Shown piece by piece: positions 57,330 through 61,819 of a stretch of 64,000 nucleotides of DNA; position 1 is the stretch's first letter, and each line of letters opens with the position of its first letter. Source of the stretch: Polyangiaceae bacterium (lineage in GTDB: Bacteria > Myxococcota_A > Polyangia > Polyangiales > Polyangiaceae); NCBI GenBank assembly GCA_025353725.1, contig JANXOF010000061.1, positions 124,001 through 188,000 on the forward strand. The letters run 5' to 3'. The position numbers were made by a program, and so were the translations under genes. Under the pieces are notes generated by a model. That model searched no databases and was not told where the DNA came from. It saw nothing but the letters and a program-made list of their open reading frames with translations.

Positions 57330-58180
<851 letters not shown>

Positions 58181-59315: not shown

Positions 59316-61385
59316 ATGAAACCACTTCGAAGCTTGAAGATGAAAATAAGAGTGCAAGTCGTTCGCAACCACACCTTCCTAAAAGCCATCACTTTCGTAG
59401 TGTTCGCGAGCTCAGCTTGGGCGTGCCAGCGCCATCCAGCGCGAGTGGCGGTTGTCAGCATTCGACCGCCGCCTAACCCTACCGGACCCGTCGCAAGGGC
59501 CGAGCACGCGCCACGCGCGGGCGATTGTACGCGAGACAATCCCGTTGACGTGCTCAGCCATTCCATCGACCTCGACGTTCGCTTAGGACCCACCGCTTCG
59601 ATCACAGGTTCAGGCGTTCTTGCGGTCCGTGCGCGCCATGACACGTCGTGGCTCGCGTTCGATGCCGTCGACCTTTTCGTTACCTCGGTCGTTGTAGGTG
59701 CTGAGTCACTTTACTTCGAGTTGCATGACGGTCGCCTTTGTATCGAGCTTTCGTCCGTGCTTGCAGAGGGAGAATCGATCGCCGTGAAGATGGCGTGGAG
59801 CGTTTCTGCCTCCAAACCGATACCAGCGTTTCGAGCCAATCAAGTATGGGCGGACTATTCGACGGCCGCGTGGATGCCAACGCTTCAAGACCCTGCTCAA
59901 CGCGCGACACTCGCGCTGCGGATCAACGCGCCGTCGGACCTGCACGTCGCCGCAAGCGGTCGTGTCGTCGGGCGGACAACCTTGCGCGCGGGTCTTACGC
60001 TTCACTCGTTTGTGCTCGATCGCCCGTCACCGCCTTTTCTTTATGCGTTTGCCGCGGGCCGTTTCGAAGAGGCCGAACAGCTCGTCGACGGCGTCGTTCT
60101 CCGCGCCTTGGGCCCACGAAAAAAAGACCTCGAAACCGCACTCTTGACCACCGCGTCGATGCTGCGCTTTCTGAGAACGCACACCGGAGCCGAATTTCCG
60201 ACTGAGGAGTATATTCAAGTCTTTGTCGAGGGTGAAGCGGCGCAGGAAGGTGCGGGTATCTCAGTCATTGGCGAGAAGGCTCTCGACGACCTCGCGAAGA
60301 ACCCGACCGAAGACTGGATATTCGCACACGAGCTCGCGCATCAATGGTTCGCTTGGCTCGTGCCGTGTGCTGACTTTGCAGACTTCTGGCTCAACGAAGG
60401 CTTTGCCACGTTCATGGTGGCTTTGCTCAAGGAGCATCGCTGGGGACGCGAAGCCTACGATCGTGAGGTCTTGCTGTGGCGTAAGCGCTCCGCGAAGGTG
60501 CAAGAGCAAACGAAGGACGCGCCGCTTTCGCTCTCCTCCCCAGACGCCGCTCCACGCACGTCACGCACGTCACGCACGCCACGCACGTCACGCACGCCAC
60601 CGCGCGAATCTGATCTTCCGCCGCGCGGTGTTACGTACTCTCGAGGTGCGCTTGTCCTTCACAAGCTTCGGGCCGAGCTGGGCGACGCTACGTTTTGGAA
60701 GGGCCTTCGTTACTACGTGAGCCAAGCCAAAGAATCCGCTTTCCCGATTGGACCGGGAGCGCGGACGGAAGACCTTCGCGCGGCGATGGAATACGTTTCA
60801 GTCAAGAACCTTTGGCCGTTCTTTAAGCGGTGGGTCTACACCTCCGCTCCCGACCTAGGAGAAAGACAGCTCCTGATTCTACCGCTCCTTCCCCATGTTG
60901 ACCTTTCCGTCGCGTCATGTGAAACGATGGCCTCGCAGGCTTGCGTGCTCACGTCGTGCTACGCTACCTCCTTGACTCCGTTGACTTTTCGAGCCGTGGA
61001 AGCACTTGTTCGCGCGCCTGCTGTAATGCGGCGTACTGTGGCGGGCGTGTGGCTGTTTGGCTCGTTTGCTCGTGGGGAGGAGACGCCTTCTTCGGATATC
61101 GATTTGGCCATTCTCTGCGACCCCGCACTGGGGGTCGATCGCGCGACGGTGATGGACCAAGTGGGTCTCGCCCTAGGTCGTGATGTCGACGTCATTGATC
61201 TCCGGACAGCGCCACCCAGTTTGGCGTGGGAGATTCTCACGCGCGGGCGTATCGTTGACGAGCGAGACGAGCTTGAGGTTGAGCGGTTCGTTCGTGCCGC
61301 GCGTTTTGAAGCGGAAGACGACGAGCAGCGCTCGCGCATGGCTTTGCTTGGTCAGATGTCTCGGGTTCGTGAGGTCGGGCGATGA
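59316..61385 (+). CDS. M1-family metallopeptidase with in-frame C-terminal MNT nucleotidyltransferase domain
   Basis: M1: 'GAGISVIGEKALDDLAKNPTEDWIFAHELAHQWFAWLVPCADFADFWLNEGFATF' (HEXXH-X18-E). C-terminus: 'VAGVWLFGSFARGEETPSSDIDLAILCDP' (GSFARG...SDID). N-terminal signal-like segment. Confidence 0.85.
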   Translation: MKPLRSLKMKIRVQVVRNHTFLKAITFVVFASSAWACQRHPARVAVVSIRPPPNPTGPVARAEHAPRAGDCTRDNPVDVLSHSIDLDVRLGPTASITGSGVLAVRARHDTSWLAFDAVDLFVTSVVVGAESLYFELHDGRLCIELSSVLAEGESIAVKMAWSVSASKPIPAFRANQVWADYSTAAWMPTLQDPAQRATLALRINAPSDLHVAASGRVVGRTTLRAGLTLHSFVLDRPSPPFLYAFAAGRFEEAEQLVDGVVLRALGPRKKDLETALLTTASMLRFLRTHTGAEFPTEEYIQVFVEGEAAQEGAGISVIGEKALDDLAKNPTEDWIFAHELAHQWFAWLVPCADFADFWLNEGFATFMVALLKEHRWGREAYDREVLLWRKRSAKVQEQTKDAPLSLSSPDAAPRTSRTSRTPRTSRTPPRESDLPPRGVTYSRGALVLHKLRAELGDATFWKGLRYYVSQAKESAFPIGPGARTEDLRAAMEYVSVKNLWPFFKRWVYTSAPDLGERQLLILPLLPHVDLSVASCETMASQACVLTSCYATSLTPLTFRAVEALVRAPAVMRRTVAGVWLFGSFARGEETPSSDIDLAILCDPALGVDRATVMDQVGLALGRDVDVIDLRTAPPSLAWEILTRGRIVDERDELEVERFVRAARFEAEDDEQRSRMALLGQMSRVREVGR
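60553..60597 (+). repeat. 9-bp tandem repeat, 5 units (cacgcacgt/cacgcacgc), coding RTS/RTP
   Basis: Units: cacgcacgt, cacgcacgt, cacgcacgc, cacgcacgt, cacgcacgc, giving PRTSRTSRTPRTSRTPPR inside the M1 region. Confidence 0.9.
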
Positions 61386-61819
61386 CCGTTCGTCCGGCCG
61401 TCGTTCTCGCCCGCCTGACGCACCTCGGGCAAGTCTTGGTGCAGCTCAATCGTCTGCGGGCCCTATCACCGTCGGAGCGCGCCGACGCGCTTATCGAGCT
61501 TGCGGCTGAACGAGCGCTGCACGTCGCCATTGAGGCCGTTCTCGACGTCGGACATCACGTCCTAGCGGGACGGGGCTTTCCGATTCCACCGACCTATCGA
61601 GAGGTTGTGCCCGCCCTCGTCGCGGCGCAGATTCTCGCGCCGGAGCTTGGAGGGCGACTCGAAGGTATGGCTGGCATGCGCAATCTTCTTTTTCACGACT
61701 ACCTGCGTGTTGACAGCAAACAAGTGTGGGCCGTCGTCGATCAGAAGCTCGATGACCTGCAGGATGTCCACGCGGCCCTCGCGGCCCTTCCGGAACTCGG
61801 TCGCAGCGCAGGCGCCTAG
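61382..61819 (+). CDS. HepT/DUF86-like protein (toxin partner)
   Basis: ATGA overlap with the M1-MNT ORF; 'MAGMRNLLFHDYLRVDSKQVWAVV' contains the HepT R-X4-H-X-Y motif. Confidence 0.85.
   Translation: MTVRPAVVLARLTHLGQVLVQLNRLRALSPSERADALIELAAERALHVAIEAVLDVGHHVLAGRGFPIPPTYREVVPALVAAQILAPELGGRLEGMAGMRNLLFHDYLRVDSKQVWAVVDQKLDDLQDVHAALAALPELGRSAGA

What the first reader, a model, noticed from the sequence alone, without database searches (positions are those of the whole stretch)
59316..61819. M1 metallopeptidase fused in frame to an MNT antitoxin-type domain, overlapping a HepT toxin gene
Seen: one uninterrupted 689-codon ORF carries a complete-looking M1 zinc site (HELAHQ...NEGFATF) and then an MNT nucleotidyltransferase motif (GSFARGEETPSSDID); its stop overlaps (ATGA) the start of a HepT-like gene with RNLLFHDY. 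Established: in HepT-MntA modules a small MNT protein AMPylates and neutralises the HEPN RNase HepT; I know of no standard version tethered to a peptidase. Inference: either a peptidase-coupled TA module, in which cleavage could separate or regulate the antitoxin, or stop-codon loss that merged two neighbouring genes. The M1 N-terminus looks exported, which conflicts with a cytosolic antitoxin. In-frame internal starts (ATG 60927, GTG 60945) could yield a free ~150-aa MNT protein from the same message.
Basis: partly seen in the sequence, partly recalled or inferred. Interest (0 to 1): 0.75.

Follow-up and report, generated by a model that had tools for sequence, protein, structure and literature searches.

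The report
Peptidase gene run into toxin-antitoxin operon
In this one bacterial genome a secreted-type peptidase gene has lost its stop codon and reads in frame into an otherwise ordinary toxin-antitoxin gene pair, which still appears to carry its own promoter and start site, so the fusion is most likely an accident and not a new machine.

Summary
The reading is correct: 59316-61385 is one 689-codon frame with an M1 peptidase part and an MNT nucleotidyltransferase part, and its stop overlaps a HepT gene. Comparative evidence shows two unrelated genes run together. All five distinct M1 orthologues found stop at exactly the same place, directly after the last shared residues (WVY..APDL); there the window has GGA (60858-60860) instead of a stop. 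None of 12 MNT relatives found elsewhere is fused to a peptidase; nine sit beside a detectable HepT. Before that start lies a conserved extended -10 box (TGC TACGCT, 60957-60965), 6-7 nt before the start codon, seen at 11 of 13 aligned start codons against 1 of 133 control ones: the layout of a leaderless promoter. Best reading: a standard MntA-HepT (type VII) module with its own leaderless promoter behind a lipoprotein-like M1 gene that lost its stop. The 38-codon linker is former intergenic DNA (chance of being stop-free about 0.35). No second genome has the fusion. A sequencing error at the lost stop cannot be excluded. A peptidase-regulated antitoxin is unlikely. Interest is low.

The parts
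59316..60857 (+). M1 metallopeptidase part (514 codons): export-type N-terminus with a cysteine at residue 37, catalytic HELAH (60327-60341) and NE (E at 60396)
   Evidence: Pfam PF01433 70.9 bits; orthologues 43-54% identical end at the codon after 60857
60553..60600 (+). 9-bp tandem repeat (5.3 copies, CACGCACGT) inside the M1 part, giving an (RTS/RTP)n insertion absent from orthologues
   Evidence: TRF; alignments
60858..60860 (+). GGA codon at the place where all M1 orthologues have their stop codon (TGA, TAG or TAA)
60858..60971 (+). 38-codon linker, inferred to be former intergenic DNA; no counterpart in M1 orthologues or in free MNT proteins
   Evidence: chance of no stop in 38 codons of this composition 0.35
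60957..60965 (+). extended -10 promoter element TGC TACGCT, 6 nt before TTG 60972; predicted leaderless promoter of mntA-hepT
   Evidence: same element 6-7 nt before aligned starts of orthologues: 11 of 13 against 1 of 133 control start codons
60972..61385 (+). MNT (MntA-type antitoxin), predicted free protein of 137 aa from TTG 60972; GSX10DXD at 61059-61103
   Evidence: Pfam PF18765/PF01909; alignment with free orthologues 50-60% identical
61382..61819 (+). HepT-like HEPN RNase toxin (145 aa), RX4HXY intact, ATGA overlap with mntA
   Evidence: Pfam PF01934 82.3 bits; alignment with orthologues 58-65% identical

Best explanation
Two independent genes have been merged into one frame in this genome. 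The upstream gene is an exported, lipoprotein-like M1 peptidase of a small, patchily distributed family whose proteins end right after the catalytic domain. It stands next to a complete mntA-hepT (type VII) toxin-antitoxin operon and has lost its stop codon, so its frame runs through about 114 bp of former intergenic DNA into mntA. The module itself should work in the standard way. mntA-hepT is transcribed from its own extended -10 promoter (60957-60965), now lying inside the merged ORF, as a leaderless or nearly leaderless mRNA. MntA starts at TTG 60972 and HepT is translationally coupled through ATGA. MntA is expected to AMPylate the Tyr of RX4HXY in HepT and silence its RNase. Messages from the M1 promoter would also give an exported M1-MNT fusion, in which the MNT domain is probably an idle tail. 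Shown by sequence: open frame, domain identities, the orthologue stop at the junction, unfused MNT relatives, the conserved -10/start spacing. Inferred: transcription start, TTG initiation, AMPylation, export.
For: M1 orthologues in five distinct sequences all stop at the codon after ...APDL/APDA or ...ASDL, exactly where the window has GGA. Twelve MNT relatives are not fused to M1, nine with a detectable HepT neighbour. Their starts align with TTG 60972. A -10 box 6-7 nt before the start occurs at 11 of 13 aligned start codons against 1 of 133 control start codons; in the window, TGNTANNNT-N6/7-DTG is expected 1.8 times per 64 kb on both strands, about 7e-5 for the five in-frame codons of the aligned zone (my arithmetic). 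GSX10DXD and RX4HXY are the defining motifs of HepT/MntA (PMC7641770) and both are intact. TANNNT about 12 bp upstream of the start marks leaderless genes in bacteria (PMC3160421), and TA modules in M. tuberculosis are predominantly leaderless (PMC3898074). A stop-free linker of this length has probability 0.35, so one stop-loss is enough. The window M1 branch is about as long as that of its nearest orthologue, 0.46 against 0.42.
Against: Relatives start with ATG or GTG, the window with TTG, which may initiate poorly on a leaderless message. No transcript or protein data exist. No same-genus genome searched holds a close orthologue of either gene, so the pre-merger locus was not seen and the time of the stop-loss is unknown. 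The linker has codon-position GC similar to the M1 part, although 38 codons are too few to decide.
Confidence: 0.8

Rival explanations
1. The fusion is a sequencing or assembly error: the living cell has a stop codon or a different frame at about 60858, and M1 and mntA are separate genes.
For: A single base difference suffices, since orthologues have a stop at precisely this codon. The +1 frame has TAG at this very point. The genome is a 98-contig assembly with 3.4% estimated contamination.
Against: No frame disturbance elsewhere in the three genes. Nothing in the data points positively to an error; no reads are available.
Confidence: 0.15
2. A functional peptidase-coupled toxin-antitoxin module: the M1 part regulates, cleaves off or localises the antitoxin.
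For: The frame is uninterrupted and both domains keep their catalytic motifs.
Against: No second example among the 184 genomes of the order searched with MNT and with the M1 profile, or in the class and phylum samples searched with MNT. M1 and MNT are not even neighbours elsewhere. The M1 N-terminus looks exported while HepT is cytosolic. MNT keeps its own promoter element. The two families have separate, patchy distributions.
Confidence: 0.04
3. The merged ORF is real and the leaderless start is inactive, so MNT is made only as part of the fusion or from other internal starts (60927, 60945, 60996), and HepT is tolerated because it is poorly expressed or inactive.
For: TTG is a weak start codon. 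The same genome holds a decayed second mntA-hepT copy, showing that such modules do decay here.
Against: The -10 element is conserved in the window at the right distance. HepT keeps all catalytic and invariant residues. Starts 60927 and 60945 lie upstream of the -10 box and would not be on its transcript.
Confidence: 0.12

Closest known systems
HepT/MntA (HEPN/MNT) toxin-antitoxin module, type VII, class I PF01934/PF01909
   Same: MNT gene upstream, HEPN gene downstream, overlapping genes, GSX10DXD and RX4HXY intact
   Different: In this genome the MNT frame is joined to an upstream M1 peptidase gene; predicted start is TTG
Free-standing M1 metallopeptidase family of Polyangiaceae-type myxobacteria (L009, L010, L064, L065, L066)
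   Same: 43-54% identity over the aligned M1 part, HELAH-X18-E (checked where aligned), lipoprotein-like N-terminus, same last residues
   Different: Window gene lacks the stop after APDL and has a 9-bp tandem-repeat insertion
Leaderless promoters (TANNNT 6-7 nt before the start codon), as in Actinobacteria and Deinococcus-Thermus (PMC3160421, PMC3898074)
   Same: Extended -10 box at fixed short distance from the start codon, in a TA operon
   Different: Here inferred from comparison only, in myxobacteria, with a TTG start in the window

Membership tests
HepT/MntA type VII toxin-antitoxin | MNT with GSX10DXD | tested here: met
   GSFARGEETPSSDID, 61059-61103; invariant G, S, D and D in the alignment
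HepT/MntA type VII toxin-antitoxin | HEPN toxin of PF01934 with RX4HXY | tested here: met
   RNLLFHDY; PF01934 82.3 bits
HepT/MntA type VII toxin-antitoxin | MNT gene directly upstream of HEPN gene | tested here: met
   ATGA overlap at 61382
HepT/MntA type VII toxin-antitoxin | Small separate MNT protein (<150 aa) | tested here: inconclusive
   Orthologues are free proteins starting at the aligned position; in the window the frame is open further upstream, and the free product from TTG 60972 is predicted only
HepT/MntA type VII toxin-antitoxin | AMPylation of HepT Tyr by MntA; RNase toxicity of HepT | not testable with these tools
   needs experiment
M1 metallopeptidase | HEXXH-X18-E zinc site | tested here: met
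   HELAH(338-342)-X18-E361, invariant in the aligned orthologues
M1 metallopeptidase | GXMEN exopeptidase motif | tested here: not met
   The position reads EAAQEGAG in the window and (D/N)xAQEA.. in orthologues, a family-wide variant, so aminopeptidase activity is less certain; read by eye
Leaderless gene | -10 box about 12 bp upstream of the start codon | tested here: met
   TACGCT begins 12 bp before TTG 60972; the same layout in orthologues
Leaderless gene | Mapped transcription start at the start codon | not testable with these tools
   no RNA data

The most novel reading that the evidence does not exclude
A lineage-specific, functional fusion in which an exported M1 peptidase carries the MNT domain out of the cytosol while a second, free MNT from an internal leaderless promoter controls HepT, so that the balance of the two promoters sets the antitoxin supply.
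Probability: 0.03. Interest if true: 0.6.

Novelty: new member of a known kind. Interest (0 to 1): 0.2.

Why it matters
It is a caution for annotators: the ORF would be called a peptidase-antitoxin fusion although the parts are independent genes. The modest positive result is that this myxobacterial MntA-HepT subfamily has a conserved extended -10 box 6-7 nt before its start codon, which suggests leaderless expression of a type VII TA system and can be tested directly.

Tried and rejected
A genome-contig scan with the whole ORF found M1 relatives only. PADLOC matches were weak PDC-S09/PDC-M05A NTase profiles and none for HepT; not followed, because the Pfam domains and gene pair are clear. Long frames around MNT in L017 (489 aa) and L032 (351 aa) were checked as possible second fusions; upstream they hold arginine-rich sequence without any M1 similarity, and the -10/start layout lies inside them. 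AlphaFold of the fusion with only three sequences gave a poor model (mean pLDDT 57; residues 509-607 below 50); it says nothing reliable about the MNT part, so no fold search was run. The generic sigma-70 scan found no promoter at 60960, because it demands a -35 box. A plasmid search found no close MNT relative. A first version of the M1 tree script failed and was redone.

Full report
The frame 59316-61385 is open for 689 codons, with Peptidase_M1 at residues 277-506 and a Polbeta/NTP_transf_2 domain at 574-652; the overlapping ORF 61382-61819 is HepT-like PF01934. The zinc site HELAH-X18-E, the MNT motif GSX10DXD, the HepT motif RX4HXY and the ATGA overlap are all present.

The M1 part. A search of the own genome finds only more distant M1 paralogues. 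Searches of public genomes and of the order find a small family, 43-54% identical to the window M1 part in alignment, in 5 distinct sequences; one is a named Polyangiaceae genome, which suggests that the window belongs to that family of myxobacteria (inference). Every one of these proteins stops at the codon directly after WVY..APDL/APDA or WVYAPASDL, with TGA, TAG or TAA. The window has the same ending, WVYTSAPDL, followed by GGA at 60858-60860. So the M1 protein is complete at 60857 and what follows is extra. The window M1 branch is not unusually long, so the peptidase does not look decayed, although it has a 9-bp tandem-repeat insertion. The N-terminus looks exported; orthologues have lipoprotein-type signals, for example LTALAITVAC and LNAAC (read by eye).

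The MNT part. Twelve other loci encode close relatives, nine with a detectable HepT beside them. None is fused to a peptidase and none has an M1 match in the sequence held around it. Two have long upstream open frames, but these hold no M1 sequence.

The promoter. Reading upstream of the aligned starts, the relatives have TAnnnT, mostly as TGnTAnnnT, 6 or 7 nt before their ATG or GTG. The window has TGC TACGCT ACCTCC TTG. Counted over 13 loci, the element precedes 11 of 13 start codons in the aligned zone and 1 of 133 start codons elsewhere in the same loci. Of the two loci that do not count, L056 has the -10 box but no start codon at the spot, and L057 has box and ATG but a broken frame after it. 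In the window, the combined pattern is expected 0.92 and 0.91 times for spacers 6 and 7 over both strands, which gives about 7e-5 for the five in-frame positions of the zone. TANNNT about 12 bp before the start is the known mark of leaderless bacterial genes (PMC3160421), and M. tuberculosis TA modules are mostly leaderless (PMC3898074). I take this as good evidence that mntA-hepT keeps its own promoter and start inside the merged frame. The weak point is the TTG start.

The linker. Codons 515-552 have no counterpart in either family. A stop-free run of 38 codons at this composition has probability 0.35, so a single stop-loss is enough to make the fusion; no selection is needed.

Mechanism. 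As in S. oneidensis (PMC7641770), MntA is expected to AMPylate the RX4HXY tyrosine of HepT; MNT is nearly always the upstream gene (PMC3710099). The exported fusion from the M1 promoter is unlikely to reach HepT. A sequencing error at the lost stop remains possible and would make the case still more ordinary. The same genome also has a decayed mntA-hepT copy on contig C70.

Noticed in passing
L006 (G000:C70:105741-106126): A decayed second copy of the same mntA-hepT subfamily in the window's own genome: C-terminal piece of MNT after a stop, HepT broken into two frames.
   Followed up: partly
L012, L017, L031-L034, L054, L058-L060: Conserved extended -10 box 6-7 nt before the mntA start in this myxobacterial subfamily, suggesting a leaderless type VII TA operon.
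   Followed up: yes
60553-60600: 9-bp tandem repeat in the M1 part, encoding an RTS/RTP-repeat insertion absent from orthologues.
   Followed up: partly
57739-57766: (CT)14 dinucleotide run.
   Followed up: no
window 60231-60260 (residues 306-315) and M1 orthologues: GXMEN motif replaced by xAAQEAAG/GAG throughout this M1 family, with HEXXH-X18-E intact; substrate specificity may differ from M1 aminopeptidases.
   Followed up: no
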